64,000 bases of DNA from Candidatus Stoquefichus sp. (GTDB taxonomy: Bacteria > Bacillota_I > Bacilli_A > Erysipelotrichales > Coprobacillaceae). A model generated the notes under the pieces. That model was given only the letters and a program-made list of their open reading frames with translations, searched no databases and was not told the DNA's origin. Each line of letters begins with the position of its first letter. Position 1 is the stretch's first letter. The stretch covers positions 1-64,000 of the forward strand of contig JAETUM010000015.1 in NCBI GenBank assembly GCA_021768625.1, given 5' to 3'. This document shows, piece by piece, positions 8,644 to 40,388 of the stretch. The translations under genes and the position numbers were made by a program.

Positions 8644-9561
8644 ATGAAAGTATGGATTGGAAATCTTGGAAAATACAATGAAGGTGAGCTTGTAGGCGGT
8701 TGGTTGGAACTTCCTGTGCATCAAGACGAACTCGATAAGTTCCTTCGTGAAGTAGTCGGTTTACAGCTTACAAATAAGGAAGTAGATGAAGCTCTTGCAA
8801 AAGATGGTGTATGTTACGAAGAATATATGATTAACGATTGGGAATGTGAACTTGATTGTGTTGAGTATCACGAATATGCTAATCTTGAAGAACTTAACAA
8901 ATTGGCAGCATTTATTGAAATGTCAAATGATATTGACAAAGTAAATGCGTATTGCCAACATCAAAATATTTCAGACATAAATGAAGTCTGTAATGTTATA
9001 GCACAAGAGGACGATATACACATTTCATCACCAGATTATCAAGCTACTTTAAGTGATGAAGAATTAGTTGGTTATTGGTACATTGATGAAGTATATGGTG
9101 GAATTGAAGAATATATTAGAAACTCTGCATTTGATAGGGGCAGTATTGAAGATTACTTTGATGTAGAGAGTTTTGGTCGTGATTTAAGATTAAATTATTC
9201 TTATGACGACAGTATGCCAGAAACCGCAGGAGAATATTGGTGTTCAGATGAATATGCTACAGATGAAGAAATCGGACAGGCATATATTGATGAATGTGGT
9301 TTCGATAGCATAACAACAGAAGAACTTGAAAGCCATTTTGACTATGAGCAATATGGCAGAAATATATTATTTGATGAATTCGACGTTATTATTAATGAAT
9401 GGGGGCATCAAGAAATTATTGATTACAGCGAAGAAATAGATGTTGATTATTATAATTCTGACGAGCTGTATCAAATGGTTGAAGATGATATTGGAAGTAA
9501 TGATGTCAAAGAGTTGGTTAATGTAGATATTAACGAGCCAGATATAACAGAAGATATGTAA
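8644..9561 (+). CDS. ardA: Antirestriction protein ArdA with extra C-terminal domain (305 aa)
   Basis: The N-terminus (WIGNLGKYNEGELVGGWLELP) is the classic ArdA opening. ArdA proteins mimic bent B-form DNA and inhibit type I restriction enzymes, protecting incoming element DNA. The composition is highly acidic, as expected for a DNA mimic. Usual length is about 165-180 aa; here it is 305. A segment typical of the ArdA C-domain occurs twice: EDYFDVESFGRDLRLN (about 167-182) and SHFDYEQYGRNILF (about 233-246), so the last domain seems duplicated. It ends in NEPDITEDM, the tag shared with the proteins ending at 25226 and 38850. The gene is in the operon leading to sortase and the transfer genes. 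Confidence 0.88.
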   Translation: MKVWIGNLGKYNEGELVGGWLELPVHQDELDKFLREVVGLQLTNKEVDEALAKDGVCYEEYMINDWECELDCVEYHEYANLEELNKLAAFIEMSNDIDKVNAYCQHQNISDINEVCNVIAQEDDIHISSPDYQATLSDEELVGYWYIDEVYGGIEEYIRNSAFDRGSIEDYFDVESFGRDLRLNYSYDDSMPETAGEYWCSDEYATDEEIGQAYIDECGFDSITTEELESHFDYEQYGRNILFDEFDVIINEWGHQEIIDYSEEIDVDYYNSDELYQMVEDDIGSNDVKELVNVDINEPDITEDM

Positions 9562-9572
9562 AGGGGTAAAAA

Positions 9573-9854
9573 ATGAACAGTGAAAGATTTTATGAATTAA
9601 AACAGGATATTATGTCACAAGATGAAGAATTAGATAATATTGCTATTGAATTATTAGCATTATCTGTTCTTAATGATTTAAGTGATGATTATTTCTTCTG
9701 TGATTATGACGATATAATTGAAGTAGCAAATGATTGGCTTGTAAACAACGGTAAAGAGATTAATAATATAAAATTCGTTCTGGAATTAAAATATGAGGAA
9801 CTTGCAGATAAATATTATGATGAAATTAATGAGGATTATGAACAGGATATATAA
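9573..9854 (+). CDS. Hypothetical acidic protein (93 aa)
   Basis: Starts 11 nt after ardA with an AAGGGG site. A small, mainly helical, strongly acidic protein with no membrane segment, ending in NEDYEQDI, another acidic tail of the kind seen at 8369 and 38015. No family recognised; it could be another DNA mimic, which is inference from composition and the ardA neighbour. Confidence 0.5.
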   Translation: MNSERFYELKQDIMSQDEELDNIAIELLALSVLNDLSDDYFFCDYDDIIEVANDWLVNNGKEINNIKFVLELKYEELADKYYDEINEDYEQDI

Positions 9855-9872
9855 TAAAGGAGTGTGAGATTT

Positions 9873-10103
9873 ATGGAACTTGATGAAAAAGAAAAATCTC
9901 AAATATATTCATTACAAGAGCTTATAATAGTTGCGGAAAAGGTATTAACTAATGCTCCAGAGGAAGAATATTGTACAGATTATGAAAACGAACTATATTC
10001 AGATATTGCCAACATTATGGAATATAAGGAATATATTGAAGATTTAGTTAATGAATTGAAAACAAATGAAATAGAAAAGGACATAACTGATGATATGTTA
10101 TAG
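9873..10103 (+). CDS. Hypothetical acidic protein (76 aa)
   Basis: ATG 9873 is preferred to GTG 9864 because it sits 10 nt after AAAGGAG. It appears to be two helices with strong acidic content, ending in EKDITDDML, related to the EPDITEDM tag. No family recognised. It sits in the ardA operon immediately ahead of sortase B. Confidence 0.5.
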   Translation: MELDEKEKSQIYSLQELIIVAEKVLTNAPEEEYCTDYENELYSDIANIMEYKEYIEDLVNELKTNEIEKDITDDML

Positions 10104-10122
10104 AAAGGCAGTGATATAGAAC

Positions 10123-10869: not shown

Positions 10870-10888
10870 TTAATGAAAAGGAGTAAAA

Positions 10889-11395: not shown

Positions 11396-11411
11396 TTTGA
11401 CAATTGTCAAT
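11396..11411. repeat. Junction palindrome
   Basis: TTTGACAATTGTCAAT directly follows the TAA at 11395. Core GACAATTGTC is a perfect palindrome. Confidence 0.7.
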
Positions 11412-11490
11412 AGACAAAGGAAGTGGTGTTAATGATTGTTATAAATACATAACAACATAAAAATACAATACAGAAAGAGAGGACTACAAA

Positions 11491-11658: not shown

Positions 11659-11680
11659 ATAAGAAATGAGGTAAAAGATT

Positions 11681-12001: not shown

Positions 12002-12005
12002 AAAT

Positions 12006-12040
12006 AAAGGATAGTGACATTATATATGTTGCTATCCTTT
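12006..12040 (+). other. Intercistronic hairpin
   Basis: AAAGGATAG (12006-12014) pairs with CTATCCTTT (12032-12040), no T-run beyond the stem. Between the Maff2 and TrbL genes it could lower downstream expression relative to the pilin-like gene. Confidence 0.6.
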
Positions 12041-12064
12041 AAATGAAAGGAAGTGAAAGAATAT

Positions 12065-12919: not shown

Positions 12920-12926
12920 TTAAATA

Positions 12927-13736
12927 ATGGAACATTTGGAAGTTGTTATTTTTGATGAAATTGACGATTATAGTGAAAAAATCAAAGGATTAACTTTTAG
13001 GCAATGGATATTTGTTGCTCTTGCCATTATTGTGGTTGTTCCTACTTATTTGTTAATCCCTAAATATACACCACTTACGAAAGATATTGTAAGCTACATT
13101 GTTATTCTTGAAGCAGCGATAATTGGATTATTTGGTTTTATCAAAATCCAAAATCTTAATGCAGAACAGATAGTGCCATTTTGGTACAGGCATTTTATGA
13201 TATATAAAAAGCCTATTGAATATATAACAGACAACGAATGGGAAAAAGCTCACGAGAAAAAGAATAAAAAATCAAAAGCGAATAAAAGTCAAAATGCTGT
13301 TGGCTCTCCTGGTATAAGTGAAAGTAATCATACAAATATACCAGCAGATGCCAAACAAGAAAATGAGGTTAAAAATTCTCAAAAACAGTTGGAACAATCT
13401 GTTGTAAATGAAGGTAAGCCACAGCTTACAAAAAGGGAACTTAAAAAGAAACAAAAACAAGAAAAGATGCTAAAGAAAGCACAGGCTAAATATGGATATA
13501 TGTTCAGTGATGAGAATGGTGACAAATCTAATAATGAAACCGAACTTATAAAAGAGCCTGTGGCGGAAGATGAATTAATAACGCACGAAGTACCTGTTGA
13601 GCCAAAGGAAGAACAGGTTACAGAAGATGCAGAAAATTTGACAAATGTCGAGGACAATAAAATTGATGATGTTTTCAATTCTTTGTCACCAGAGGAAAGA
13701 AAAACATTATTAAAGAAGTTGGTTAATAATGAGTGA
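12927..13736 (+). CDS. PrgI-family (TcpE/VirB3-like) protein with long charged tail (269 aa)
   Basis: Residues 1-110 are a PrgI domain: a short cytosolic N-terminus, GLTFRQWIFVALA, two membrane helices (about 25-45 and 50-72) and the PFWYRHFMIYKKPIEYI segment. PrgI/VirB3 proteins sit next to VirB4 in the channel. PrgI proteins are usually about 110-130 aa; here residues 110-269 are a long Lys- then Glu-rich coiled or disordered tail ending in a helical SPEERKTLLKKLV motif. A junction-type palindrome lies inside the tail coding region. It overlaps the next gene by 8 nt. Confidence 0.85.
   Translation: MEHLEVVIFDEIDDYSEKIKGLTFRQWIFVALAIIVVVPTYLLIPKYTPLTKDIVSYIVILEAAIIGLFGFIKIQNLNAEQIVPFWYRHFMIYKKPIEYITDNEWEKAHEKKNKKSKANKSQNAVGSPGISESNHTNIPADAKQENEVKNSQKQLEQSVVNEGKPQLTKRELKKKQKQEKMLKKAQAKYGYMFSDENGDKSNNETELIKEPVAEDELITHEVPVEPKEEQVTEDAENLTNVEDNKIDDVFNSLSPEERKTLLKKLVNNE
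13637..13652. repeat. Junction palindrome (within the prgI 3' end)
   Basis: TTTGACAAATGTCGAG contains GACAAATGTC. It encodes NLTNVE in frame. It lies about 90 nt before the next start codon. Confidence 0.6.
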
Positions 13737-13974
13737 GCTTAAAGAGTATGAAATCAATTTCTTAAAATATTACAGTAGCAAATATAATATTGCTTTTATT
13801 AAGGTAAAACACAATAAAGGCAAAGTAAGCACAGATGTCACATTATATAGCCAAAATAAAAAAGCAATAAGACATAAGCCAACTTATTGTGGTGTTACTG
13901 TAAAAACAATGTTTCAATGGCTTGAAGAAAATAAAATTTACAAAGTCATTGATTTAATTAACGAAAGGAAGTGA
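13729..13974 (+). CDS. Hypothetical protein in transfer operon (81 aa)
   Basis: It starts within the end of the PrgI gene and overlaps the upstream side of the VirB4 gene, so the three are tightly coupled. Basic, soluble alpha/beta protein (YCGVTVKTMFQWLEENKIYKVIDLI at its end). No family recognised. Conservation of position between PrgI and VirB4 would suggest a role in channel assembly. Confidence 0.55.
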   Translation: MSELKEYEINFLKYYSSKYNIAFIKVKHNKGKVSTDVTLYSQNKKAIRHKPTYCGVTVKTMFQWLEENKIYKVIDLINERK

Positions 13975-13982
13975 TTAAACAA

Positions 13983-16511
13983 ATGGATAGTTCACTTTTA
14001 GTTATTTTAGGTGCATTTGCTATTGGTATGCTGATATTCTTTATTGTAGGTAGCAAAAATAAGCAAAATTCACCCCAAAGAGCAACAATAAAAAAAGCAA
14101 AAGAAAAGAAACAAAAGCATAAAATGTTTATTCCTCGAACTACACCGCAAGTTATGAGTATGTATTTCAAGGAATATGATAAAAAAACAGGAATAATGAG
14201 AATTGACGAAAATCTTTATAGTGTTTGCTATGAGTACACAGATGTATCATTTGCAAAAGCAAATGAAGAACAGCAAACAGCTATTATGATAAAATATATT
14301 GATTATCTTAATTCTCTTACAACTAATATGAATATTCAAGTTATTCATTGTGGTGTACCTGTTGCCACTGATGCTTATAAAGAGGATTATGTTTTTTCAA
14401 TTACTGACAATATGACCGAAAATGAAAAGAAACTTGCATCAGAGTTTAATGATGCAATTGAAAGTAATTTAGGTAATAAAAAAACTACATTTTGTGAAAC
14501 AAGACTTATTGTTGTTACAATGTATGCAGATAGTATTGAAAGTGCAAAAGATTTATTTTATGACTATCAGATGCAGATTGAAGAATTATTTTCAACTTTT
14601 CCATCAACAATAAGAAGATGGAGCATTGATGAAAGATTACAGCTTCTTTATGACACCTTTAACATAACCCCATTTGTTTTGGAACACCCAGACAAAAATA
14701 TTCTTCAAGTATTTGAAGAAACAAACAAAGAGATTGAAGAAACAAACAAAGGATTGCCAGAGGAAGAACAGCGTTCTTTACTTTCTCTTTATGATTTTCT
14801 TGCCCCTAAAAGTATTGACCCTCGTGAAGATGATTTTATTAACATTGAGGATAAGAAATTTATTAAGGTAATGTATGTTAAGAAGTTTCCAACAACTCTC
14901 TCTCCTGCATTTTATAATCGCTTAACTACAATGGAAGCTAATCTTATTGTAACAGAAAATATTTCTCCTACAGAGCCACAGAAAACAATTAAAAAATTGG
15001 ATAAGAAAATTTCTGGTTTGCAAACAGAGGAATATGAAAAAGTTAAGCGTTCAGCTAAGAATGGTATTCCTTATGAATATGCTCGTGATGAAAAATTAGC
15101 TGAAAAATTGGAAAACCAAAGAGGATTAAGAAAAGCATTAGTAAAAAAGAAGCAAAAACTATTCAAAAAGAATATACTTGTTTGTATTATTGCTAATGAT
15201 ATTGACGAGATGCAAAGAGTTGAAAAGCAGGTAAGAACGCTTGCTGGTGAATTTGTTGTTGAAATGGGAGATATAAAATGGCAACAATTTGAAGCTCTAC
15301 AGAGTTTACTTCCTTTTGGAAATAACACGTTACAATTTAGAAGGTCATTACACAGCGAAGCAACGGCAGAAAGTGTACCATTTAACAATAAGAGTATAAC
15401 TCATAAAAAATCTTTGTATTATGGTATAGATTTAGTTTCCAAAAAGATGCTTTGTTGTGACAGGAAACTGTTAATGAATGGTAATGGCTGTATTTTGGCA
15501 ACTTCTGGTAGCGGTAAGTCTTTCTTAATTAAAACCATTGCAGAACAGACATATCTTCGTTATCCAGAAGATGAAATCTTTATCCTTGACCCACAAGGTG
15601 AGTATGCTCCTGTTATTAAGGCTCTTAATGGACAGATTGTTGAAATATCCACAACTGCCAATACATACATCAATCCCTTCGATATGGAATTGCAATATGT
15701 TGATGAAGATAATGACCCTGTGAAAACCAAAATTGAATATATACTTGCTTTTATGGAAAGTATTGTTGGTAATCTTACAGGTGAACAGGAAAGTATTATT
15801 GACAGAGCTACAAGGCGAATATATGAAGCCTATGACATAAAACCTTGTGAAGATAATAAACCGTCTTTCCCTGTGTTTTATAAAGAATTGCAGACTTACA
15901 ATGAAGTAGAAGCCAAAAACCTTGTACTTATCCTTGAACGATATGTACAAGGTGGTATGGATATTTTCTCAAAAGACACAAATATAGAAATTCATAATAG
16001 AGTTGTATGTTTTGATTTGCACAATCTTACAGCAAGTATGCAAACCACAGGTTATCTTGTCGTACTTGAACATATTATGAATAGGGTAGCAAAGAATAAA
16101 GCTCTTGGAAGAAACACTTGGCTTAACATAGATGAATTTCATATTTTGTTGTCAAATGTATATTCTGCGGATTACATTGCCAAAATCTACAAAATCGGCA
16201 GAAAATTGGGCGTTCTTCCAACCATTGTTACACAGAATATTGCAGATGTTCTTAAATCAGAGCAAGGCTGTAAAATTCTTTCTAATAGTGAATTTGCTGT
16301 TATACTTAAACAGAAACCTCTTGATTTGGTAGCAATATGTAAAATCTTTAATATATCCGAAGAACAGGCAAAATATTGCTCCATTGCATCACAGAGTGGA
16401 CAAGGGTTAATTGTTTATGGTGAAGATATTGTACCATTTCGTAACCGTGTTTCAAAAGACAGTTATATTTATGAACTTAATAATACTGATGGTATGCAGG
16501 TTGCAAGGTAG
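13983..16511 (+). CDS. virB4: VirB4/TraE-type conjugation ATPase (842 aa)
   Basis: The energising ATPase of the type IV secretion channel. One N-terminal membrane helix (about 4-23) is unusual for VirB4 but common in this clostridial subgroup. The ATPase domain has Walker A ATSGSGKSFLIKT (about 506-518), Walker B TWLNIDEFHILL (about 710-721) and a C-terminal arginine-containing region. ATG 13983 is preferred to GTG 13971 because it follows GGAAGTG at the right distance. It is in the operon Maff2-TrbL-PrgI-81aa-VirB4-M23. Confidence 0.93.
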   Translation: MDSSLLVILGAFAIGMLIFFIVGSKNKQNSPQRATIKKAKEKKQKHKMFIPRTTPQVMSMYFKEYDKKTGIMRIDENLYSVCYEYTDVSFAKANEEQQTAIMIKYIDYLNSLTTNMNIQVIHCGVPVATDAYKEDYVFSITDNMTENEKKLASEFNDAIESNLGNKKTTFCETRLIVVTMYADSIESAKDLFYDYQMQIEELFSTFPSTIRRWSIDERLQLLYDTFNITPFVLEHPDKNILQVFEETNKEIEETNKGLPEEEQRSLLSLYDFLAPKSIDPREDDFINIEDKKFIKVMYVKKFPTTLSPAFYNRLTTMEANLIVTENISPTEPQKTIKKLDKKISGLQTEEYEKVKRSAKNGIPYEYARDEKLAEKLENQRGLRKALVKKKQKLFKKNILVCIIANDIDEMQRVEKQVRTLAGEFVVEMGDIKWQQFEALQSLLPFGNNTLQFRRSLHSEATAESVPFNNKSITHKKSLYYGIDLVSKKMLCCDRKLLMNGNGCILATSGSGKSFLIKTIAEQTYLRYPEDEIFILDPQGEYAPVIKALNGQIVEISTTANTYINPFDMELQYVDEDNDPVKTKIEYILAFMESIVGNLTGEQESIIDRATRRIYEAYDIKPCEDNKPSFPVFYKELQTYNEVEAKNLVLILERYVQGGMDIFSKDTNIEIHNRVVCFDLHNLTASMQTTGYLVVLEHIMNRVAKNKALGRNTWLNIDEFHILLSNVYSADYIAKIYKIGRKLGVLPTIVTQNIADVLKSEQGCKILSNSEFAVILKQKPLDLVAICKIFNISEEQAKYCSIASQSGQGLIVYGEDIVPFRNRVSKDSYIYELNNTDGMQVAR

Positions 16512-22601: not shown

Positions 22602-22624
22602 AAATATTTTTATTAAATTATAAT

Positions 22625-22651
22625 AAGGTTGCGACCTTAAACGCAGAAAGG
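22625..22651 (+). promoter_or_regulatory. Conserved 5' leader element, copy 2
   Basis: AAGGT (22625-22629) pairs with ACCTT; the loop TGCG keeps GCG able to pair with CGC in AAACGCAG. AGAAAGG is the ribosome binding site, 9 nt before ATG 22661. Long class. The first loop base is T rather than G, which leaves the proposed GCG-CGC pairing intact. Confidence 0.75.
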
Positions 22652-22660
22652 AACAAACCA

Positions 22661-24458: not shown

Positions 24459-25226
24459 ATGAAATTATTAACAGAAGAATTAGTAAAAAAGTTTGAAGAA
24501 TACCCATTATACAGCCAAGACGGCAAGAGTGGTGATGCAAAGGTTATAGCAAAATTCTTTAATCCAATGGGGCAGGGAACTTGGCTTATAACAGAAGGTG
24601 ATATTATTCGAGATGAACAAGGGAACATTGAAGATGTTGAAATGTTTGGTTTTGTTAATCTTGTAGGTATAGAATATGCTGAACTTGGTTATGTATCACT
24701 TAATGAATTGCAATCAGTCAAATTACCTTTTGGTTTAACTATTGAAAGAGATTTATATTATCCAGAAGATATAACGCTTCGAGATGCCTGTCAAAGAGAG
24801 TTTGGCGAAGTGCCAGATATATTAAGAAAAGAATATAATCTTAAATATACCGTTTATCAGCTTAATGACAACGAAAGCAATCACTTTTTAAGGTTTGAGC
24901 CAATAGGAAGATTAAAAAATGGTATTGAAGATATTAAATTCAGCAATTATGACAAAGTATATGAAAATTCAAGAGAATATAGCATTGATAATATATTTTC
25001 AAATGAAATTTTAGAAGAACTATATGAGGAATTCAATATTGATATTCCAAAAGATTATAAAGGACATTCATTATCTATAAGTGATGTTATTGTTCTTGAA
25101 TGTGATGGAGTAAGCAAGGCTTATTATTGTGATACTTTTGGTTTTAAGGAAATCCCATCATTTATAGAGCAAATTAAAGAAAATGACAAGGATAAAACCG
25201 AGCCAGATATAACAGAGGATATGTAA
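24459..25226 (+). CDS. DUF2958 plus YodL-like accessory protein with EPDITEDM tail (255 aa)
   Basis: Residues 1-105 match the DUF2958 pattern (LYSQDGKSGDAKVIAKFFNP, GTWLITEG, ELGYVSLNELQ), a family found mostly beside ArdC and other mobile-element anti-defence genes. Residues 140-240 contain a YodL-like domain (ELYEEFNIDIPKDYKGHSLS, SDVIVLECDGVSKAYYCDTFGF), common in very large ICE methylase/helicases. The end TEPDITEDM is the same tag as in ArdA and the ATPase ending at 38850. First gene of an operon of acidic proteins. Function unproven; an anti-defence role is inferred from family context. Confidence 0.78.
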   Translation: MKLLTEELVKKFEEYPLYSQDGKSGDAKVIAKFFNPMGQGTWLITEGDIIRDEQGNIEDVEMFGFVNLVGIEYAELGYVSLNELQSVKLPFGLTIERDLYYPEDITLRDACQREFGEVPDILRKEYNLKYTVYQLNDNESNHFLRFEPIGRLKNGIEDIKFSNYDKVYENSREYSIDNIFSNEILEELYEEFNIDIPKDYKGHSLSISDVIVLECDGVSKAYYCDTFGFKEIPSFIEQIKENDKDKTEPDITEDM

Positions 25227-26944: not shown

Positions 26945-27322
26945 GTGGCAAAATACGAGGAGTTCAATGCTTTAGAAAGAATTGTACAGAGATATGTAAA
27001 GCATTATCAAGATGACTATTATAAGTATGACCTCGACGAATTAAGTAGTAAGGAGCGAAGTGATGCTTATTTATGGATTGTTCGTACAAACGGTACAAAT
27101 CTCATAAAAAAAGATGAGGTTGCTACAAGTGATGTAGCTCGTTATTATCTTGAAAACCGATATTCAATAGGGCAAGATATAAAATTTTATGAAATTGACA
27201 CAGAAACAATGTCACCGCATTGGATAAGAGATATTAACAGTTATTATGAAAGATGTGTTGCAGAACACGAATATAACGAAATGTACAATTCTGATTATAA
27301 CGATTTTGATTATGAATATTAA
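26945..27322 (+). CDS. Hypothetical protein (125 aa)
   Basis: GTG 26945 follows AGAGGT. Small, Tyr/Asp/Glu-rich helical protein with the aromatic acidic tail NDFDYEY, comparable to DDYDDYDY of ToxN. No family recognised; co-transcribed with its neighbours. Confidence 0.5.
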   Translation: MAKYEEFNALERIVQRYVKHYQDDYYKYDLDELSSKERSDAYLWIVRTNGTNLIKKDEVATSDVARYYLENRYSIGQDIKFYEIDTETMSPHWIRDINSYYERCVAEHEYNEMYNSDYNDFDYEY

Positions 27323-29282: not shown

Positions 29283-30125
29283 ATGATAGGAGCAACAAAA
29301 ACAGGTGAATATTGGAGAACTATCGAAATGTTATCTAAAATTACTGGAACAAATCAGCAAAGTATAATGGAAATGTTATATTTTCTTTATGATAGCCAAT
29401 ACGATAATAAGGATTTAAAAAGTATGGCTGACTTAATATTAAGAAATCAGAAAGAATGTAAAAAAACTTCATTAAACTTAAATGGTGTGGATTTTGAAGG
29501 ATTAGAAACAGCTTTGAAAGAATTTGATGAAAATGGTATCAGAGCAGAGTGTGGTAAATGGTCTGTTGTTCGCAGTGCATACGATAAGCAGTTTGAAATT
29601 CATTATGAGGGTTATACTGTACTTGATTGTGTTGCTGATATGCTTTCTGGTGGATATAGACCTAATAATCAATGGAACGAACAAGCAGAACAAAAATTAA
29701 AAGAAATTGTTGCTAATGCTTATGGATTAGAACTGCATAAAACAATATCTTCTATTGATGAATTAAAAGAAGCAATAGAGAATTTTGGTTGGAATGTTTA
29801 TGAAAGTGGATTTGGCAGAAAAGTATATGTAGAATGGGAATTATCAAAATATAGTCCAGCAGGTGAAGATTTCAGTTTCCCAGTTGAACATCAAAATAAT
29901 CCTGCAATGGCTGTTAAGGCAATCAGAGATTATGCTTATAATTTTGATACAGAAGAACATATAAAACTGTGGGTTGAAGCACAAGACAATATATCTGGTG
30001 TTCCGTCTATAAGGGAACTTGTTGATGATGCAGATGCAATACAAGAAATGTTAGACGAGCTTTCGGATTTCTGTTCTGAACTTGAAATAGAACACGAAAA
30101 CGAATATGAATATGAAAAGGAGTAA
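29283..30125 (+). CDS. Hypothetical accessory protein (280 aa)
   Basis: ATG 29283 is chosen over GTG 29274, which overlaps the AAGGAGTG site. N-terminal helical domain, then a domain with KYSPAGEDFSFPVEH and NNPAMAVKAIRDYAYNFD (about 205-240) that recurs in clostridial ICE proteins of unknown function and is probably alpha/beta. The tail EYEYEKE is acidic. No catalytic motif seen. Confidence 0.55.
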   Translation: MIGATKTGEYWRTIEMLSKITGTNQQSIMEMLYFLYDSQYDNKDLKSMADLILRNQKECKKTSLNLNGVDFEGLETALKEFDENGIRAECGKWSVVRSAYDKQFEIHYEGYTVLDCVADMLSGGYRPNNQWNEQAEQKLKEIVANAYGLELHKTISSIDELKEAIENFGWNVYESGFGRKVYVEWELSKYSPAGEDFSFPVEHQNNPAMAVKAIRDYAYNFDTEEHIKLWVEAQDNISGVPSIRELVDDADAIQEMLDELSDFCSELEIEHENEYEYEKE

Positions 30126-30132
30126 TTTTATT

Positions 30133-30666
30133 ATGAATACATACGATTTTAAAAATAAAGAAGATTGTCAAGAGTTTATTGCACTTATTTTAGACAATTA
30201 TTGTCCAAAACAGCTTGAAGGTATTGATGCTTATGTAATAAATGATGCAGTAAAGTCTTGTAAAGAAAATGGTTATGAGCTTACAGGAAATTCAATATAT
30301 AATGAATGTTGTGTTATTGCTACAAATAATCTTGTTATCAGACTTGAAGATATTAAAAATTATGAATTAGATTGGTTTGATGAACTTTCTTCATATGAAT
30401 TTGCTTGTGTAGAAAACTTTTTAAACAATAAAGAAAAACTCGAAGGGCTGTTTGATTGGTATTGTAATGGTTCTTTGGATAGTAGTATTTTCCTTGTTGA
30501 AAGCAATATAACAGAGGAAGATAAATTTGCAATGCAAAAACTTAATGAAATTACAGAGTGCTTTTCGGATTTCCAAGATGAAATTGGTGGATATGTTATA
30601 AACCTTGATGAATTGTTACAATGTGAAATAAAACTTGAAGTTAATGAGCCAGATATATGCGATTAA
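30133..30666 (+). CDS. Hypothetical acidic protein with EPDICD tail (177 aa)
   Basis: ATG 30133 follows AAAAGGAG. A helical, acidic protein with several Cys, ending LEVNEPDICD, the short form of the tag found also at 40388. The overlap with the previous gene's end and the lack of a promoter place it last in the accessory operon, which is closed by a 12-bp hairpin. No family recognised. Confidence 0.55.
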   Translation: MNTYDFKNKEDCQEFIALILDNYCPKQLEGIDAYVINDAVKSCKENGYELTGNSIYNECCVIATNNLVIRLEDIKNYELDWFDELSSYEFACVENFLNNKEKLEGLFDWYCNGSLDSSIFLVESNITEEDKFAMQKLNEITECFSDFQDEIGGYVINLDELLQCEIKLEVNEPDICD

Positions 30667-33035: not shown

Positions 33036-34817
33036 ATGGCTATGGAAACAGAAGTTGCAAGAAGTGATACTCAAACAGTCTTAAAGCAAATTGAGGAATT
33101 TATAAGAAAATTATTAAAACTGTTTGCGTTAAAGGTGGTTATGCCTTTATCTAAAAGGGCTACATCATATATATACAGGCACAATATTTCTGGAAAAAAC
33201 AGAGTATTAAAAGATGGGCCGACCAAAGAAACCGATAGAATTAAAGACCTGTCTTATGAAGAAAGTGTAAGTGTATTAATTGATTACCAACAACAAGGAA
33301 TTAAGACATACATTGTTGCAGAAAATACAAAAGATGATATTACAGGTAAAAGGAAAACAGAAGCATCAACAGAAAAATTTGCTAAAATAGCAAGAGATTT
33401 ACGAAAAGCAAAAAGTGATTTAGCAGATAAACCACAAAGCCAAAAATTACAAAACAAAGTTAATAAATTACAAAAAGAATATACTCAAAAAATTAAACAG
33501 ATGGAAGATGGCTTTGATGAAAATAAATACAATACACTTGTCAAGGAAACCATTACAAAGAAATTTCCAAAAGACCACCGTAAATCTGAATTAGATTTAT
33601 CACAGGAAGAACGAGATGAAATATATGAGAAAAGCTGTTCTGGAAAACCTATTAAATTTACTGTTGTAACAAATGCAAAATGGAAAGCACAAAATGAAAG
33701 AACAAGAGAAAGAATACTTGAAGAAAGAACAGCTAAAAAACAGCAAAAAATTGATGATATTCTTTCTGTTACTAAAACAGAAGAATATGAAAAAATGCCT
33801 TATGATGAAGAAAAATTCAATGAAATGGTATCGTCTATGAAAGAAAAACTTGGACGAGAGCTTGACGAGAATGAATTAAATGACATTAAAGGGCAGTGTA
33901 AATACACACAAATTACTGTTGAACAATTTAAAGAAGATGCTGAAAAAGACAATGTTGGATATTGTATTTATCAGTATGACAAAGATAGAGCAGATACTAT
34001 TTGCCGTGAATTAAACAGCAATGATGATATAGAAAAATTTGCTTGTGAATATGTCAATGATAATAATGGAAACAAAGTTGTCAATGTTTATATTTATGAT
34101 AAAGACGATATTCTCTATGAACATAAAGAAGGTGTATCGTTTCAGCATTGTAGAAATTTAGAACCGAAAACACCAATAGATGAAATGACAAATCAATCCG
34201 CAAATAGTAATGCTCTTTTTGCAGGTACTCAAATAACAATTGATTATGAACAATTGAACAATGCTCGAAGAATATTTAAAGATTTTGATTATAGCTTAAA
34301 TATCATAACAAATGATAATGGCAAAAAACAGGCACAGCTTCTTGTTCAAGGATTAACGGAAAGAGATGTGAATAAGATGCTGATTGAAGAAAAAAGAGCA
34401 GATGTTGTTCAAGAAAGCCTTTTAAAACACAAAGAAAACGATAAGCAAAGAACGAGAAACGAAGCAAAACTGTTAAATAACAGTTCTGTTATAACAACGA
34501 TTTCTGAATTAAGAAAGAAAGCAGTTGAAAATGAAACTACAAAAGCATTTGTTGATAAGTATGACGAATTTAAACAGATAAATAATAATAATGACTTATC
34601 TACAGATAAATACAATGAATTTTATAATGCTTTCTTCAATGACAAGGAACAGCTTAACAAAGTTGCAACAACCTTACCAGAAAAAGATAATAAATCTGTT
34701 GCTCCAAATAATAATGTTCAAAAAGTTACTGAAACAAAAGATGATTTGGCAGAGAATGAATTTATTGTTGACAATTTTGATAACTTTGCTGACCTTGAAT
34801 TAGATGGAAAGGAATGA
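33036..34817 (+). CDS. PcfB/DUF3801-like accessory protein of the coupling complex (593 aa)
   Basis: It directly precedes the VirD4 gene, the position of PcfB (DUF3801) proteins, which help bring the relaxase to the coupling protein. Residues 1-130 fit loosely: an N-terminal helix (VLKQIEEFIRKLLKLF) and SYEESVSVLIDYQQQGIKTY. The rest is a long, highly charged, helical region (coiled-coil-like) with two further small domains, making it far longer than typical PcfB (about 150-200 aa). ATG 33036 follows AAGGAAGGAG. The acidic end is ADLELDGKE. Family call rests largely on position. Confidence 0.6.
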   Translation: MAMETEVARSDTQTVLKQIEEFIRKLLKLFALKVVMPLSKRATSYIYRHNISGKNRVLKDGPTKETDRIKDLSYEESVSVLIDYQQQGIKTYIVAENTKDDITGKRKTEASTEKFAKIARDLRKAKSDLADKPQSQKLQNKVNKLQKEYTQKIKQMEDGFDENKYNTLVKETITKKFPKDHRKSELDLSQEERDEIYEKSCSGKPIKFTVVTNAKWKAQNERTRERILEERTAKKQQKIDDILSVTKTEEYEKMPYDEEKFNEMVSSMKEKLGRELDENELNDIKGQCKYTQITVEQFKEDAEKDNVGYCIYQYDKDRADTICRELNSNDDIEKFACEYVNDNNGNKVVNVYIYDKDDILYEHKEGVSFQHCRNLEPKTPIDEMTNQSANSNALFAGTQITIDYEQLNNARRIFKDFDYSLNIITNDNGKKQAQLLVQGLTERDVNKMLIEEKRADVVQESLLKHKENDKQRTRNEAKLLNNSSVITTISELRKKAVENETTKAFVDKYDEFKQINNNNDLSTDKYNEFYNAFFNDKEQLNKVATTLPEKDNKSVAPNNNVQKVTETKDDLAENEFIVDNFDNFADLELDGKE

Positions 34818-34823: not shown

Positions 34824-36839
34824 ATGATAGTAAAAAAAGAAAAAAAGCAAAAACCAATTATTCCAATCTTAATTATTCTTATTGTTGCCTACATAATGCT
34901 TAAAGTAATGACAGGTGTTGACAATAATGGGGGAGTATTTTCCTTTGAAGTGTTACAAAAAGCAAGTGATGATGTATTCAAATTTTGGCAACCATTATCA
35001 TTTACAGCCAAGAATATAGGTATATCACTTATTGTTGGTCTTTTCGGTTGGGCTTGCTATGAATGTTTACGATTGCAGAACAAAAAAAATTTGCAAGAAA
35101 ATACCTATGGTAGTGCCGAATGGCAAGATAGTTCTGCAATTGCTAATCGTAAAGATAAAGAAATCCAAGATAATATTATTTTAACTGCTACAGAGCAGGT
35201 ATCAAAGAATATGAGAAAAAGCGGAATGAACAGACATATTCTGATAGTTGGTCGTCCTGGTACAGGTAAGTCGAGATACTTTTTCAAGCCGAATTTGCTT
35301 AATGCTACAGGCTCATTTGTGTGTACTGACCCAAAAGGCGAATTGCTCCGTGACTGTGGTGGAAATCTGGTAAGGCAGGGATATGATATTAAAGTTCTTA
35401 ATCTGGACGATATGAGTGCATCTAACCATTATAATCCATTTATGTATATTCGTACAATAATGGTTGATGAGGTTGATAAAGAAACAGGTGAGCTTGTTAA
35501 AGTCGAAAAGATTAAAGAAGATGATGTAATGACTTTAATTGATTGTATTATGAAGAATACCAAAAGCGACCAGATTGAAACCCAGACAGGCGACCCCTTC
35601 TGGGAAAAAGCCGAGATGCTTTTTATGCAAAGCCTTGTGTATTATATGCTTGAAGAATATAAGGACAGACCATTAAAGAAGAACTTTACAACTATTCTTG
35701 CTTTAATTCGACTATCTGCACCAGACAACAACGGCAGAAGTGAGCTTGATGGATTGTTTAAGGAATTTGAAGAAAAATACGGTGATGAGCATATTGCTGT
35801 TAAGCAGTACAAGCATTTCAAAGTATCAGCATCATCACCAAAGATGATGTCTACCATCATAATGACTGCAACTGCACGTTTAGGCTGTTTCAATATCAAA
35901 GCTCTTGCTGATATGACAAATGACGATACTATGGAGCTTGACCGTATTGGTATGCCAATATCAGAAGATGAATTAAAAAAGATTAACGATAAATCTACCA
36001 GAAAAAGCGGACACGGCAAAGTTGCATATTTCATTATTACCAAACCTTCTAACAGCACATTTAATTTTATTGGAACATTAATGTATACTCAAATGTTTCA
36101 ACAGATTGATGAAAATGCTTTGAGATGTGGTGGAAGCCTTGCAACTCCACTTGATATGTATATGGACGAATTTAGGCAACAAGGTCAAATTCCAATGTTC
36201 CAAGAAATGTTGGCATATGTCCGTGGCTTAAATGTAGGTATTGTTATCTGTTTACAATCATTAGCACAGCTTAAAGAATTTTACAAAGATACTTGGGAAA
36301 ATATACTTGACTGTTGCGATACAATGATACTCATTGGCTCGAATACTAAAGAAACAAATGAATATTTCAGCACTATATTAGGTAAAAAGACTTGGTATAA
36401 GAAATCAAGTGGTCGTACATTCTCACGACAGGGCAGTTCTTCACAGAATTGGGACGTTGTTGGCAGAGAGTTAGCGACTATTGATGAGCTTGCAAAAATT
36501 GAAAAAGGGCATTGTGTAATGTTTATTGCTAATGTGGGAGCTTTTTATTCACCATTGTATGACTTAACAAAACACCCTAATTATCAGTATATTTATGAGC
36601 CTTGGCGTAGTGATGAAACAAAGCAATGGTTATATATTCATAAACCGAATGAAGAAACAGAGGAAAAACAAGAAAGTAAGATGCTTTCTGCTCTTAAACA
36701 AATCTTTGGAAAAGGCTGTGAAATCAAATCTGATAATGAGCCGTTAAATGTTGATACTCTTACCGCAGATGGTTATGAAACAGATGATGATGGAGCAATA
36801 TTACTTCCAGATGATTTCTTGGTAGGTATTAATCAATAA
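34824..36839 (+). CDS. VirD4/TraG-type coupling protein (671 aa)
   Basis: The T4SS ATPase that links the relaxase-DNA complex to the channel. Two N-terminal membrane helices (about 10-27 and 57-77), then the TraG NTPase domain with Walker A VGRPGTGKSRYF (about 141-152), the CTDPKGELLRDCG box and Walker B YMDEFRQQGQIP (about 445-456). The C-terminus is acidic (YETDDDGAILLPDD), a usual site for substrate contacts. ATG 34824 follows GGAATGATG. Operon partner of the preceding PcfB-like gene. Confidence 0.93.
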   Translation: MIVKKEKKQKPIIPILIILIVAYIMLKVMTGVDNNGGVFSFEVLQKASDDVFKFWQPLSFTAKNIGISLIVGLFGWACYECLRLQNKKNLQENTYGSAEWQDSSAIANRKDKEIQDNIILTATEQVSKNMRKSGMNRHILIVGRPGTGKSRYFFKPNLLNATGSFVCTDPKGELLRDCGGNLVRQGYDIKVLNLDDMSASNHYNPFMYIRTIMVDEVDKETGELVKVEKIKEDDVMTLIDCIMKNTKSDQIETQTGDPFWEKAEMLFMQSLVYYMLEEYKDRPLKKNFTTILALIRLSAPDNNGRSELDGLFKEFEEKYGDEHIAVKQYKHFKVSASSPKMMSTIIMTATARLGCFNIKALADMTNDDTMELDRIGMPISEDELKKINDKSTRKSGHGKVAYFIITKPSNSTFNFIGTLMYTQMFQQIDENALRCGGSLATPLDMYMDEFRQQGQIPMFQEMLAYVRGLNVGIVICLQSLAQLKEFYKDTWENILDCCDTMILIGSNTKETNEYFSTILGKKTWYKKSSGRTFSRQGSSSQNWDVVGRELATIDELAKIEKGHCVMFIANVGAFYSPLYDLTKHPNYQYIYEPWRSDETKQWLYIHKPNEETEEKQESKMLSALKQIFGKGCEIKSDNEPLNVDTLTADGYETDDDGAILLPDDFLVGINQ

Positions 36840-36852
36840 TAATTATATCGAA

Positions 36853-36868: not shown

Positions 36869-36873
36869 AAAAT

Positions 36874-36900: not shown

Positions 36901-36907
36901 TAAAAAT

Positions 36908-37030
36908 ATGAGTAAAATTGAGTTTATTATTAATACATTAGGTGTAATTCCGTGTGATAAAAACGAAATAAATATGTTGTCTGTTCTTGAAAAAGAGGAA
37001 AAATGTGAAGGAGTACAAGAGTATGAGTAA
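36908..37030 (+). CDS. Small acidic protein overlapping ardC (40 aa)
   Basis: ATG 36908 is placed by the leader element's AGAAAGG. The 40-residue product is helical and acidic, ends in QEYE, and its last 8 nt overlap the ArdC start (ATGAGTAA), so the two are translationally coupled. It may be a leader gene tuning ArdC translation or a small functional protein; no family recognised. Confidence 0.55.
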   Translation: MSKIEFIINTLGVIPCDKNEINMLSVLEKEEKCEGVQEYE

Positions 37031-38015
37031 TGCAAATTTGAATAAAGCACGAGAGCTTCTAATACAAAAATATGTTGATGCACTTAAACAGGAACAAATA
37101 CCTTGGCAAATGGGGTGGTATAGAGATTTGCCCAAAAATGCAATTACAAAAACAGAATATAGGGGAGTAAACAGTTTGTTACTCTCCTTTATTGCGGAAG
37201 AAAAAGGATATTCTGGAAATAGATGGTGTACCTTTAATCAAATTGCAGATAAGAATAATAAATACCACCCACAGCAAAAGTGGCACTTAAAAAAGGGAAG
37301 CGAAAGTGTACCAGTAGAATATTGGTATGTTTATAATACCGTAGAGCGAAAAAAATATACTTTTACAGATTATCATAAAGTCATTATTAATGAGCCAGAA
37401 CGAGAAAATGAATTTAGATTATGTTCTCGTATATATTTAGTTTTCAACGAGGATTGTATTGAAGGAATTTCAAAGGAAATACCACAAGAAAGACCAGAAC
37501 TTGACCGTCTGGAAGTAATAGATAAAATTATTACTAATATGGGTGTTATGTATGTGGAAGAAGGAAACAGTGCATATTATAATAGCTTGACTGACAAAGT
37601 TGTTATTCCACCTATTGAGCAATTCAAAAATGAATATGCGTATTGTGCAACACAGTTACACGAATTATGTCACGCAACAGGTCATTCAAGCAGACTTGAC
37701 CGAAAACTTGGTAATGGTTTCGGAACTGTTGATTATGCAAAAGAAGAACTTAAAGCAGAAATAGGTTCATCATTTTTAATGCAAGAGCTTAATCTTAAAT
37801 ATGACAATAAGCATATAGAAAATCATTTAGCATATATACAATCTTGGATAAGTGTATTGGAAAATGACCCTAATGAGTTGTTCCGAGCTATTCAAGATGC
37901 TAACAAAATTGTCGAATATGTTGAAAAAATGGGTGAAATTAATCTGCTAAAAGAAAATAATCCTGTGTTAGAAAATGTAACCGTTTCTAATGATGATTAT
38001 GAAATAGAAATTTAG
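37023..38015 (+). CDS. ardC: ArdC-type antirestriction protein (330 aa)
   Basis: The N-terminal DUF1738-like single-strand DNA-binding domain (about 1-130; QEQIPWQMGWY, YRGVNSLLLS, WCTFNQI) and the C-terminal zincin-like domain with TQLHELCHATGH (His about 212 and 216, Glu about 213) are both present. ArdC proteins protect incoming DNA against restriction and in some systems are carried to the recipient. ATG 37023 follows GAAGGAG. The tail DDYEIEI is acidic, like several neighbours. It is coupled to the preceding 40-aa frame and followed by the ATPase gene at 38032. Confidence 0.88.
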   Translation: MSNANLNKARELLIQKYVDALKQEQIPWQMGWYRDLPKNAITKTEYRGVNSLLLSFIAEEKGYSGNRWCTFNQIADKNNKYHPQQKWHLKKGSESVPVEYWYVYNTVERKKYTFTDYHKVIINEPERENEFRLCSRIYLVFNEDCIEGISKEIPQERPELDRLEVIDKIITNMGVMYVEEGNSAYYNSLTDKVVIPPIEQFKNEYAYCATQLHELCHATGHSSRLDRKLGNGFGTVDYAKEELKAEIGSSFLMQELNLKYDNKHIENHLAYIQSWISVLENDPNELFRAIQDANKIVEYVEKMGEINLLKENNPVLENVTVSNDDYEIEI

Positions 38016-38031
38016 GGAGAGAACTTACTGT

Positions 38032-38850
38032 ATGAGCAAAAAAACGATAATAGTTAATTTATTTGCAGGGGCAGGGGCAGGTAAAACAACTTGTGCTTGG
38101 GAAATTGCAAGTGAATTAAAAAAAAGAGGTATAGAAACAGAGTATGTATCTGAATATGCCAAAGAGCTTGTTTGGGATAATAATATGGAAATGCTTGATG
38201 GCTCATTAGAGCATCAGCAGATTTTGTATCACGAGCAAAAAAGAAGAATTGACAGGTTGATAGGAAAAGTTGATGTTGTTGTAACGGACAGTCCAACATT
38301 ATTATCAATAATGTACCTTAAAGAGCCTAACAAGGACTTTGAAGCAAAGGCTATTGAAGAATATAAACGAAATCAAAATTTCAATCTATTTATTAATAGA
38401 GGAAAAGAATATCAACAGGCAGGTAGAATTCATAGCTTACAGGAAAGCAAAGCTGTTGATAATAAGATAAAACAATTCCTAAAATCAAACAATATTTATT
38501 TCGGTACATATTATCATTCTACTGTAAATGTATTAGTCGATAATATTGTTAAAAATCTTAATAATGTTCAATTAGAAAAAAGTCATTCTCATAAATCAAA
38601 AACAAATAAAACAGATACTGTTGATTTGGATAATATTAAAAGAAAGTTTCTAACAAGTGCTGAAAAATATATGAAAAGTGACGGAAAGGATTTTGATGCA
38701 CAGGAAGATATGGAAGCAAACGCATATATTCTTTCACAGCAAATGCCAGAATACATTGGAAAGTCAATTGGAATTTTATACAAAGATATAAAAAAGGAAA
38801 TGGAAAGTAAAGGCTTAAATAATGAGCCAGACATAACAGAAGATATGTAA
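38032..38850 (+). CDS. NadR/Ttd14-like AAA ATPase with EPDITEDM tail (272 aa)
   Basis: P-loop ATPase domain of the AAA_28/NadR-C type: Walker A LFAGAGAGKTTCAWEIA (about 9-25), EYVSEYAKELVWD, the VVVTDSPTLLS strand (Walker B-like, about 80-90) and a C-terminal helical lid. Related enzymes phosphorylate nucleosides or nicotinamide riboside. Residues 190-272 are a helical extension that ends NNEPDITEDM, the same tag as ArdA. Between ArdC and a nucleotidase-like gene it may act on nucleotides used by host defence, which is inference. Confidence 0.75.
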   Translation: MSKKTIIVNLFAGAGAGKTTCAWEIASELKKRGIETEYVSEYAKELVWDNNMEMLDGSLEHQQILYHEQKRRIDRLIGKVDVVVTDSPTLLSIMYLKEPNKDFEAKAIEEYKRNQNFNLFINRGKEYQQAGRIHSLQESKAVDNKIKQFLKSNNIYFGTYYHSTVNVLVDNIVKNLNNVQLEKSHSHKSKTNKTDTVDLDNIKRKFLTSAEKYMKSDGKDFDAQEDMEANAYILSQQMPEYIGKSIGILYKDIKKEMESKGLNNEPDITEDM

Positions 38851-38867
38851 TAATGAGGTGAAAAATT

Positions 38868-40388
38868 ATGAGATTATTTGTAGATATGGACGGTACACTT
38901 GCAAAGTGGAATAATGTTGCATTTGAGCAATTGTACGAAGAAGGATATTATCGAAATTTAGAGCCAAATAAAAGACTGCTAAATGATATAAAATATATTC
39001 TTCAAAAAGGTGATTATGATATTTATGTATTAAGTGCATACTTAACTGATAGCAAATATGCACTCCAAGAAAAGAAAGAATGGCTTAAAGAACACTTGCC
39101 AGAATTACCAGAAGAAAAGCAATTATTTGTCCCTTTTGGAGAAAGCAAGGCAGCATTTTTTGATAAAAATAATTTAACACCGATAACAGCTACAGATATA
39201 TTACTTGATGATTATACAAAAAACTTGTTAGAGTGGAAAGAGTGGGGTGGAACAGGTGTTAAATGCCTTAATGGTATAAACCACACAAATAAGACTTGGC
39301 AAGGTGATGCCTATTCGTTAGAAGAACAATTTTATACAACTTCTACAGGGGAACATAGAATTGCAAAAGAATTGATAGCAATAGTTAATGATTTAAAAAA
39401 TTATCCAGATGAATATGCTTTTATTTCAAGTCACCCTGTTTTAAGAACAAAAAAAATTGAATATTTTAGTGATTTTCAAAGTATAATGAGTGCATATAAT
39501 ACCGTTGAAAAAATCAAAGAAGGGATAGAAAACAACCCTAATATTAATAATGTAATTGACTTCCAAAATTCTTTTGAGAAAATAAGTAATGATTACCCAG
39601 AACTGAATATTTATGGAAGTGAAATTATTGAACAAAATGATAATTATTGTATGGTAGATGTAACAACTAAAGATGGAGTAGTAACATTTACATATAATTC
39701 TGTTGACTACGATATAGGTAACTTTGAAATTATGGATAATGAAGGTACGGTATGTACACTTGATTATCACGACTTATGTGATGTTGCCTGTATGTATCGT
39801 GCATCACTTGGTGAAAAAAAGATACTATGTGAAGATATTAATGCGTATCATTATTCATTCAAAGATAACTTTGAAGAAGCTGTAGCCAGAGCATCAGAAG
39901 ATTGTAATTATGAATTTGCTGTTGATAATAAAAAAGCTACAGTATATGGTAATTATTCTATTTATAACATTGAATTATTAAAAAACAATGTTATAAGTCA
40001 TAGTATTGCAGGTACTTATGATAATTGTCCTTCAAAGTGCCGAATTTATTTACAACATTTGACAGATGCTGATATTGATATTATTAATAAACTTGATAAT
40101 ATGTATGGCAGTGAAATAAAAAATGATAACTTGTATGGACAATTGCTTCGTAATACTGATGAAATAAATAAGTATATAAAGGAAAATGCTTATACATATT
40201 TAGAGGATATATTAAGTAACATTAAGCAATTACCAGATGACTGCTGTCCTAATAACACTAACGAATTATTCAGTGCTGGATTATATAATTGCGATAATTT
40301 ATATTGTGATGCTATTGAAAATGTAATGGAAATTAATCTGGACGACCTTAACAATGTAAGAAATGAGCCAGATATATGTGATGATTAA
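38868..40388 (+). CDS. 5'-nucleotidase-like HAD protein with long extension and EPDICDD tail (506 aa)
   Basis: Residues 1-160 form a HAD-fold domain of the deoxynucleotidase type: DMDGTLAKWN (catalytic Asp about 6 and 8), YVLSAYLTD (motif II) and ILLDDYTKNLLEW (motif IV). Residues 165-500 are an added helical/beta region resembling the accessory modules of other proteins here, with many Cys and acidic residues. The end is RNEPDICDD. ATG 38868 follows ATGAGGTG. A nucleotidase next to a nucleotide-kinase-like ATPase may counter nucleotide-based defence or adjust dNTPs during transfer (inference). Confidence 0.72.
   Translation: MRLFVDMDGTLAKWNNVAFEQLYEEGYYRNLEPNKRLLNDIKYILQKGDYDIYVLSAYLTDSKYALQEKKEWLKEHLPELPEEKQLFVPFGESKAAFFDKNNLTPITATDILLDDYTKNLLEWKEWGGTGVKCLNGINHTNKTWQGDAYSLEEQFYTTSTGEHRIAKELIAIVNDLKNYPDEYAFISSHPVLRTKKIEYFSDFQSIMSAYNTVEKIKEGIENNPNINNVIDFQNSFEKISNDYPELNIYGSEIIEQNDNYCMVDVTTKDGVVTFTYNSVDYDIGNFEIMDNEGTVCTLDYHDLCDVACMYRASLGEKKILCEDINAYHYSFKDNFEEAVARASEDCNYEFAVDNKKATVYGNYSIYNIELLKNNVISHSIAGTYDNCPSKCRIYLQHLTDADIDIINKLDNMYGSEIKNDNLYGQLLRNTDEINKYIKENAYTYLEDILSNIKQLPDDCCPNNTNELFSAGLYNCDNLYCDAIENVMEINLDDLNNVRNEPDICDD

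What the first reader, a model, noticed from the sequence alone, without database searches (positions are those of the whole stretch)
8644..40388. A shared acidic C-terminal tag (EPDITEDM / EPDICD) on five unrelated proteins
ArdA (ends 9561), DUF2958-YodL (25226) and the AAA ATPase (38850) all end EPDITEDM; the protein ending 30666 and the HAD protein (40388) end EPDICD or EPDICDD. Partial forms occur at 10103 (KDITDDML) and 61093 (KDITD). Folds differ, and the codons differ at synonymous sites (AAC/AAT, GAT/GAC, GAA/GAG, TGT/TGC), so selection on the peptide is more likely than recent copying. Most carriers look like early-acting or anti-defence proteins. A tag for delivery through the conjugation channel to the recipient, or for a shared binding partner or protease, would explain it.
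Basis: partly seen in the sequence, partly recalled or inferred. Interest (0 to 1): 0.85.

Follow-up and report, generated by a model that had tools for sequence, protein, structure and literature searches.

The report
Element-specific tail tags on plasmid proteins
Six unrelated proteins of one circular conjugative plasmid end in the same short tail, and a distantly related mobile element does the same with a different tail, which suggests a private address label, most likely for sending these proteins into the recipient cell together with the DNA.

Summary
The tails are real and in six proteins, not five. EPDI occurs six times in the contig's proteins, each time 5-8 residues from the C-terminus, and nowhere else in the 2.92-Mb genome. 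The carriers are not homologous to one another. The contig is a circular 70,770-bp conjugative plasmid with a CD1110/CD1115-type T4SS.

The phenomenon is wider. In the related element of G218, 17 of 39 proteins (17 of 26 cytosolic accessory proteins, 0 of 13 T4SS/membrane proteins, P=8e-5) end in another tail, EEDLDEIEK-like. Orthologues in the two elements carry the tail of their own element. Sharing exceeds residue-order shuffles in both elements (0/500) and is absent from host proteins.

In the plasmid the tail codons are more alike than usage predicts (P=0.005), so tail DNA was probably copied. In G218 they are not (P=0.41), so there the peptide is the selected unit.

Best explanation: an element-specific C-terminal tag read by the element's own T4SS substrate receptor, exporting establishment proteins with the DNA. 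The recognition tag is well supported. Export is inferred (about 0.5).

The parts
8644..9561 (+). ArdA anti-restriction protein, 305 aa, C-terminal tag EPDITEDM at 9535-9561 (with stop)
   Evidence: PF07275 E=1.4e-28; tail; Tn916-type homologues of 165-176 aa end in EIVY/EIPY without extension or tag
24459..25226 (+). DUF2958 + YodL protein, 255 aa, tag EPDITEDM at 25200-25226
   Evidence: PF11171 and PF14191; tail
30106..30666 (+). unknown protein, 186 aa, tag EPDICD at 30646-30666
   Evidence: tail; orthologue in G218 (83760, 32% id) ends EEDLDEIEM instead
38032..38850 (+). AAA_28 ATPase, 272 aa, tag EPDITEDM at 38824-38850
   Evidence: PF13521; homologues of 180-189 aa in other genomes end after the ATPase domain without tag
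38868..40388 (+). HAD/NT5C-like protein, 506 aa, tag EPDICDD at 40365-40388
   Evidence: PF06941; G218 homologue (62080) ends EEMDEIDK
9864..10103 (+). 79-aa protein with partial tag KDITDDML (10077-10103)
60542..61093 (+). 183-aa protein with partial tag KDITD (61076-61093)
36987..38015 (+). ArdC-type protein (ArdcN + MPTase-PolyVal) with an acidic tail of another wording, NDDYEIEI; orthologues end EEDMDELEMEM (G218) and EEEVEM (G127)
6604..7386 (+). ToxN-family protein with acidic tail FDDYDDYDY; orthologues end TDEFDEIEK (G218) and DDDIGLTI (G040)
   Evidence: PF13958
29274..30125 (+). protein with acidic tail NEYEYEKE; the G218 homologue (LPD11 domain) ends EEEMEDIEK. The last three residues overlap a ribosome-binding-like sequence
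13971..16511 (+). VirB4 of the CD1110 family; no tag, C-terminus conserved across elements
   Evidence: NF045971 E=2.6e-190
34824..36839 (+). VirD4 coupling protein of the CD1115 family, candidate receptor; no tag
   Evidence: NF045973 E=7.2e-115
12927..13736 (+). PrgI-like protein with a long Lys-rich extension, candidate receptor for acidic tails
   Evidence: extension of 111-166 aa in this T4SS clade; mostly 22-45 aa in Tn1549-class relatives
33036..34817 (+). protein encoded directly upstream of VirD4, ends ADLELDGKE; counterparts in G218 and G040 end FDLELNKEDE and KDLELNIEE; possible adaptor
   Evidence: no Pfam or NCBIfam match
48754..50430 (+). relaxase; no tag in this clade
   Evidence: PF03432

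Best explanation
The tail is an element-specific C-terminal recognition tag. Many otherwise unrelated cytosolic proteins of the plasmid carry it as a flexible end of about 8 residues, and a protein of the same element binds it. The most likely reader is the substrate-recruiting part of the element's own CD1110/CD1115-type conjugation machine (VirD4 coupling protein, or an adaptor such as the Lys-rich PrgI extension or the protein encoded just upstream of VirD4). Tagged proteins (ArdA, YodL and ArdC-type polyvalent proteins, nucleotide enzymes, and in G218 also a methylase, Fic, RadC and ToxN) are thereby exported into the recipient with the DNA, where they protect and establish the plasmid. 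Tag and receptor co-evolve, so each element has its own wording and proteins acquired by an element obtain the local tag, at least in this plasmid partly by copying of a short tail-coding DNA stretch. Shown: tails, non-homology, sharing beyond composition, restriction to cytosolic accessory proteins, element-specificity across orthologues. Inferred: a common receptor (strongly), T4SS export (moderately), identity of the receptor (weakly).
For: EPDI only at C-termini and only on this plasmid. Order-specific sharing in two elements, 0/500 shuffles each, and none in hosts. G218: 17/26 cytosolic accessory against 0/13 machinery/membrane proteins, Fisher P=7.8e-5; acidic tails 0/563 in hosts and 0 at an internal control position of the same proteins. 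Five orthologous pairs whose tails differ: for the two EPDI carriers with an orthologue (30106, 38868) the tail is far closer to unrelated proteins of the same element than to the orthologue (medians 35-36 and 28-30 against 13 and 11); the G218 members of all five pairs match their own element better. Homologues of ArdA and AAA_28 in other genomes lack extension and tag. G218 tail codons are as diverse as expected, so selection acts on the peptide. Carriers are of the type proposed to travel with conjugating DNA (PMC5512222). Precedents: Glu-rich C-terminal signals bound by basic patches of the coupling-complex protein DotM (PMC5802825); F-type T4SS co-transfers at least 16 plasmid proteins and uses C-terminal or internal signals (PMC11288057). 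In Tn1549-class relatives, 7 unrelated families including relaxases, the canonical T4SS substrate, share a basic ..DLEV/DMEL tail: 17/549 against 0/563 host proteins.
Against: No transfer data. In the acidic-tag clade the relaxase itself carries no tag. VirD4 C-terminal charge does not complement the tag in the window plasmid (-8 over the last 30 residues). Only two elements give a strong signal; G040 is weak (11/500) and the G127 fragment is not significant. The Tn1549-class pattern was defined after seeing the data, and most of those elements are not significant on their own. Known T4SS C-terminal signals are usually basic or hydrophobic rather than acidic (PMC11288057).
Confidence: 0.5

Rival explanations
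1. The tag recruits the proteins to an element-encoded cytosolic hub (for example a replication, partition or single-stranded-DNA complex) in donor or recipient, as SSB tails do, without any export.
For: All that is shown is a shared, element-specific peptide, which any co-encoded partner would explain. Many carriers belong to DNA- or nucleotide-related families. Relaxase and T4SS proteins of this clade lack the tag.
Against: Carriers are functionally mixed (Fic, ToxN, RNAP alpha-CTD-like, HAD), which fits a delivery label better than one complex. In Tn1549-class relatives relaxases share the tail with polyvalent proteins.
Confidence: 0.24
2. The tail is a stability signal, a C-degron or a protection from a protease or its adaptor, setting the lifetime of proteins needed only briefly after transfer.
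For: Short C-terminal tails are classical degrons (own knowledge); carriers are early-acting proteins.
Against: A host protease would select similar tails in different elements, but the wording differs (EPDITEDM against EEDLDEIEK), and host proteins do not use it. An element-encoded protease or adaptor would be needed and none was identified.
Confidence: 0.11
3. In this plasmid the tails are only a short repeated DNA sequence that spread by recombination and happens to read as a protein end; no peptide function.
For: Codons are more alike than expected (54/66 against 37.4, P=0.005; GAG 6/6), and three copies differ by at most 2 of 24 bases.
Against: All six copies are in frame and within 8 codons of the stop. 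Flanks are unrelated and no out-of-frame or intergenic copy exists in the genome. G218 shows the same phenomenon with codon diversity as expected for peptide selection.
Confidence: 0.06
4. Acidic C-termini are a general compositional habit of these proteins (DNA mimicry or solubility), not a specific recognition sequence.
For: Many proteins here have acidic ends of varied wording (DDYEIEI, EDYEQDI, DYEPIEI).
Against: Sharing exceeds shuffles that preserve the composition of each tail (0/500 in two elements); the internal control stretch is not acidic.
Confidence: 0.07

Closest known systems
Legionella Dot/Icm E-block (Glu-rich C-terminal) signals recognised by DotM
   Same: Acidic C-terminal stretch shared by otherwise unrelated proteins that are encoded with a T4SS; a basic partner in the coupling complex reads it (PMC5802825)
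   Different: Here the element is a conjugative plasmid or ICE of an unidentified bacterium whose T4SS relatives are in Bacillota; tails are shorter, nearly identical within an element, of different wording between elements; no DotM was identified and no translocation is shown
C-terminal translocation signals of conjugation-system protein substrates (F/pED208 conjutome)
   Same: Conjugation machines co-transfer plasmid-encoded establishment proteins using C-terminal or internal signals (PMC11288057)
   Different: Those signals vary from protein to protein and show no common sequence; here one near-identical tag is used by many proteins of an element
Polyvalent proteins of phages and conjugative elements (Iyer et al. 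2017)
   Same: Same protein class: ArdA, YodL, ArdC-N + MPTase, LPD11, MuF-C, proposed to enter recipients with the DNA (PMC5512222)
   Different: The passages read do not describe a shared C-terminal tail or an export signal on these proteins
Tn1549/CD1110-CD1115 family conjugative elements
   Same: Window VirB4 and VirD4 hit the CD1110 and CD1115 equivalogs far above cut-off
   Different: VirB4 only about 30% identical to Tn1549-type plasmids; their shared tails are basic + DLEV/DMEL rather than acidic
SSB C-terminal tail (protein-hub tag)
   Same: Short acidic C-terminal peptide that recruits partners (own knowledge)
   Different: One protein with many partners there; here many proteins with, presumably, one partner

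Membership tests
CD1110/CD1115-type conjugative element | VirB4 and VirD4 equivalogs NF045971 and NF045973 above curated cut-off | tested here: met
   634 against 325 bits and 384 against 250 bits
CD1110/CD1115-type conjugative element | relaxase, PrgI and VirB6-like genes on the same element | tested here: met
   PF03432 relaxase at 48754-50430; PrgI family by profile; 12053-12919 matches the equivalent gene in G572, G432 and G040
Legionella-type E-block signal | acidic Glu-rich stretch in the last ~25 residues | tested here: inconclusive
   clearly met in G218 (17/39 with at least 6 D/E in the last 12), only partly in the window plasmid (4/73; EPDITEDM has 4 acidic of 8)
Legionella-type E-block signal | bound by DotM of a Dot/Icm coupling complex | not tested
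   no dedicated search for a DotM/TrbA homologue was run; the element's VirB4 and VirD4 are CD1110/CD1115 family
T4SS translocation signal | tail necessary and/or sufficient for VirD4-dependent transfer | not testable with these tools
   needs mating assays
T4SS translocation signal | present on the canonical substrate, the relaxase | tested here: not met
   relaxases of the window plasmid, G218, G040 and G127 end without the tag; in Tn1549-class relatives two relaxases carry the class tail
Polyvalent proteins | several conflict-type domains combined in one protein of a mobile element | tested here: met
   DUF2958+YodL and ArdcN+MPTase-PolyVal; other carriers are single-domain
SSB C-terminal tail | DDDIPF-type end on an OB-fold protein | tested here: not met
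   wording differs and the carriers match ArdA, YodL, AAA and HAD families rather than SSB

The most novel reading that the evidence does not exclude
CD1110/CD1115-type conjugative elements use a private address code: each element has its own C-terminal tag wording, carried by a large fraction of its cytosolic accessory proteins and read by a co-evolving receptor in its transfer machine, so that a coherent suite of 6 to about 20 anti-defence and establishment proteins is delivered with the DNA; genes entering the element become passengers by acquiring the local tail.
Probability: 0.4. Interest if true: 0.9.

Novelty: new variant of a known kind. Interest (0 to 1): 0.77.

Why it matters
Which proteins, besides the relaxase, these conjugation machines deliver, and how they recognise them, is poorly known. 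A sequence-readable tag would turn that into a direct test: it predicts the whole passenger list of an element, gives a minimal export signal to fuse to reporters, and points to the receptor by co-variation. It would also explain how polyvalent and anti-defence proteins reach the recipient before the element's own genes are expressed. The conjugation family concerned includes the vancomycin-resistance element Tn1549.

Tried and rejected
Ribosome-binding-site overlap as a cause of shared ends: explains some ..KE endings elsewhere in the window but not the EPDI tails, whose Shine-Dalgarno sequences lie after the stop. EPDI tails elsewhere: no second genome of the family has a cluster of in-frame EPDI tails; none in viral contigs for EPDI[T/S/C..][E/D]DM. 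YodL and VirB4 scans of genome contigs found nothing, and VirB4 in viral contigs found nothing. Class- and phylum-wide VirB4 searches added only short fragments of the same clade. Charge complementarity between tag and VirD4 C-terminus: fails for the window plasmid. The Tn1549-class basic tails looked striking by eye, but most such elements do not pass the shuffle test alone; kept as a lead. AlphaFold of ArdA with nine homologues: low confidence (mean pLDDT 55; residues 222-305 below 50), no evidence either way on the tail beyond being modelled as coil. Literature searches for shared C-terminal tails in conjugative elements found no prior description, but the library lacks most subscription papers.
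Full report
OBSERVATION. Three proteins end EPDITEDM (ArdA, DUF2958-YodL, AAA_28 ATPase), one EPDICD, one EPDICDD (HAD/NT5C-like), and a sixth, on the same contig just beyond the window (C120:66429-67052, DUF6874), ends EPDICND. The codon-degenerate pattern matches six times in the 2.92-Mb genome, all at these six ORF ends; five matches in the window compare with 0.22 expected. EPDI occurs 5-8 residues from the end in all six and nowhere in 186,907 host residues. BLASTP shows no homology among carriers. With the composition of each tail kept and residue order shuffled, 23 non-homologous tail pairs at score >=28 compare with 1.98 expected; no shuffle of 500 reaches this. Besides the EPDI group, the plasmid has other acidic, hydrophobic-alternating ends (DDYEIEI on ArdC, EDYEQDI, DYEPIEI, FDDYDDYDY on ToxN).

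WHAT THE ELEMENT IS. The contig ends overlap by 85 identical bases, so the molecule is a circular replicon of 70,770 bp. It has ParA- and ParB-like genes (from the translations, by eye), a relaxase, and VirB4 and VirD4 of the CD1110 and CD1115 families, the machinery type of Tn1549 and relatives. I read it as a conjugative plasmid; a circularised integrative element is not excluded.

THE SAME THING, WITH ANOTHER WORDING, IN A RELATED ELEMENT. The closest VirB4 relatives with enough flanking DNA are in G218 (46%) and G040 (47%). In the G218 element, protein after protein ends EEDLDEIEK, EEDLDEIEM, EEEMDEIEK, EEDFEELDEVEK, EEDFEDRDI and so on. Of 39 ORFs, 17 have at least six acidic and at most two basic residues in the last twelve; host ORFs 0 of 563; an internal stretch of the same proteins 0. 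The 17 are all among the 26 cytosolic non-T4SS proteins and none among 13 T4SS, relaxosome, surface or membrane proteins (Fisher P=7.8e-5). Their families are diverse: N6/N4 methylase, Fic, NT5C, LPD11, MuF-C, RadC, AAA_14, RNAP alpha-CTD-like and several without match. Tail sharing: 63 non-homologous pairs at >=28 against 6.9 expected, 0/500. G040 shows a weaker version (..DIELDIEM..SEIDMEM..AEIEINI; 11/500) and the G127 fragment is not significant.

TAILS FOLLOW THE ELEMENT, NOT THE PROTEIN FAMILY. Five protein families are present in both the window plasmid and G218. Their bodies align; their ends do not: 30106 EPDICD against EEDLDEIEM; HAD EPDICDD against EEMDEIDK; ArdC DDYEIEI against EEDMDELEMEM (G127: EEEVEM); 29274 EYEYEKE against EEEMEDIEK; ToxN DDYDDYDY against DEFDEIEK. 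Similarity of a tail to unrelated proteins of its own element exceeds that to its orthologue for both EPDI members and for the G218 members of all five pairs. VirB4, in contrast, keeps its C-terminus across elements. ArdA homologues on Tn916-like elements end after the ArdA domain without extension or tag, and AAA_28 homologues elsewhere likewise. This pattern is expected if each element encodes its own reader of the tag.

COPYING OR CONVERGENCE. In the window plasmid the opposite holds: 54 of 66 codon comparisons are identical against 37.4 expected from the element's codon usage (P=0.005), with GAG in all six although it is 15% of Glu codons. A short tail-coding stretch was probably copied between genes and then kept in frame at the ends. 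In G218 the codons match as often as usage predicts (120/164 against 116.9, P=0.41), so there the peptide is what selection sees.

THE WIDER T4SS CLASS. In Tn1549-class relatives of the same order and in named plasmids, unrelated proteins tend to end in a basic stretch plus DLEV, ELEV or DMEL: YodL polyvalent proteins, a 314-aa protein also present in the vanB plasmid NZ_LR135359, relaxases in two elements, and others; 17 of 549 proteins in seven non-homologous families against 0 of 563 host proteins. The expression was chosen after looking, and of the single elements L091 is the clearest, so this is a lead. It matters because the relaxase is the one certain substrate of such machines.

MECHANISM. 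Shown: an element-specific, order-dependent C-terminal peptide on cytosolic accessory proteins. Strong inference: a co-encoded receptor. Moderate inference: the receptor belongs to the T4SS and the tag exports the proteins to the recipient. The carriers are the kinds of proteins proposed to enter with the DNA (PMC5512222), F-type machines are known to carry at least 16 plasmid proteins (PMC11288057), and Legionella reads acidic C-terminal tails with a basic coupling-complex protein, DotM, whose binding residues co-vary with the presence of Glu-rich tails (PMC5802825). Candidate receptors: VirD4; the PrgI-like protein, which in the acidic-tag clade has a Lys-rich extension of 111-166 residues against mostly 22-45 in relatives; the protein encoded upstream of VirD4. 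A simple charge complementarity with the VirD4 C-terminus was tested and fails for the window plasmid. The relaxase of this clade is untagged, so it would need another signal, as is known for relaxases with internal signals TSA/TSB (PMC12624023).

LIMITS. Two elements carry the statistical weight; genomes are anonymous; ORFs were called by a simple longest-ORF rule; the literature library is partial; no transfer, binding or stability experiment exists.

Noticed in passing
contig C120 (window 1-64000 = C120:1-64000), ends 1-85 and 70771-70855: The 70,855-bp contig has 85-bp identical ends, so the molecule is circular (70,770 bp); together with ParA- and ParB-like genes it looks like a conjugative plasmid rather than an integrated element.
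   Followed up: yes
6487-7386: Type III toxin-antitoxin: ToxN-family protein (PF13958, 6604-7386) preceded by 3.1 copies of a 32-bp repeat (6487-6586), probably the ToxI RNA. ToxN itself and its relatives in G218 and G040 carry C-terminal extensions with tails in the style of their element.
   Followed up: partly
57358-58985: A serine-recombinase-like reading frame is broken into three overlapping pieces (57358-57588, 57527-57889, 57966-58985), so the recombinase gene looks disrupted.
   Followed up: no
4634-6220 and C120:68921-70288: A surface-protein-like gene has a 420-bp tandem duplication (81% identical), and its 76-aa cysteine-containing module recurs at the C-terminus of the protein at 68921-70288.
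   Followed up: no
12927-13736: PrgI-like proteins of this T4SS clade have a long Lys-rich extension (111-166 aa) that is mostly 22-45 aa in Tn1549-class relatives.
   Followed up: partly
L145:30629-31573, L145:26648-30628, L145:32867-34195: In the vanB-carrying E. faecium plasmid NZ_LR135359, the 314-aa protein ends TKKNELEV, the YodL protein KSKGLEVE and the relaxase GKEWTQEL, resembling the tails of unrelated proteins in gut relatives.
   Followed up: partly
7509-8369, 9573-9854, 22574-23098, 26945-27322, 36987-38015: A second group of window proteins ends in Tyr-containing acidic tails (KEDYDI, NEDYEQDI, EQDYEPIEI, DFDYEY, NDDYEIEI), perhaps a second tag dialect on the same plasmid.
   Followed up: partly
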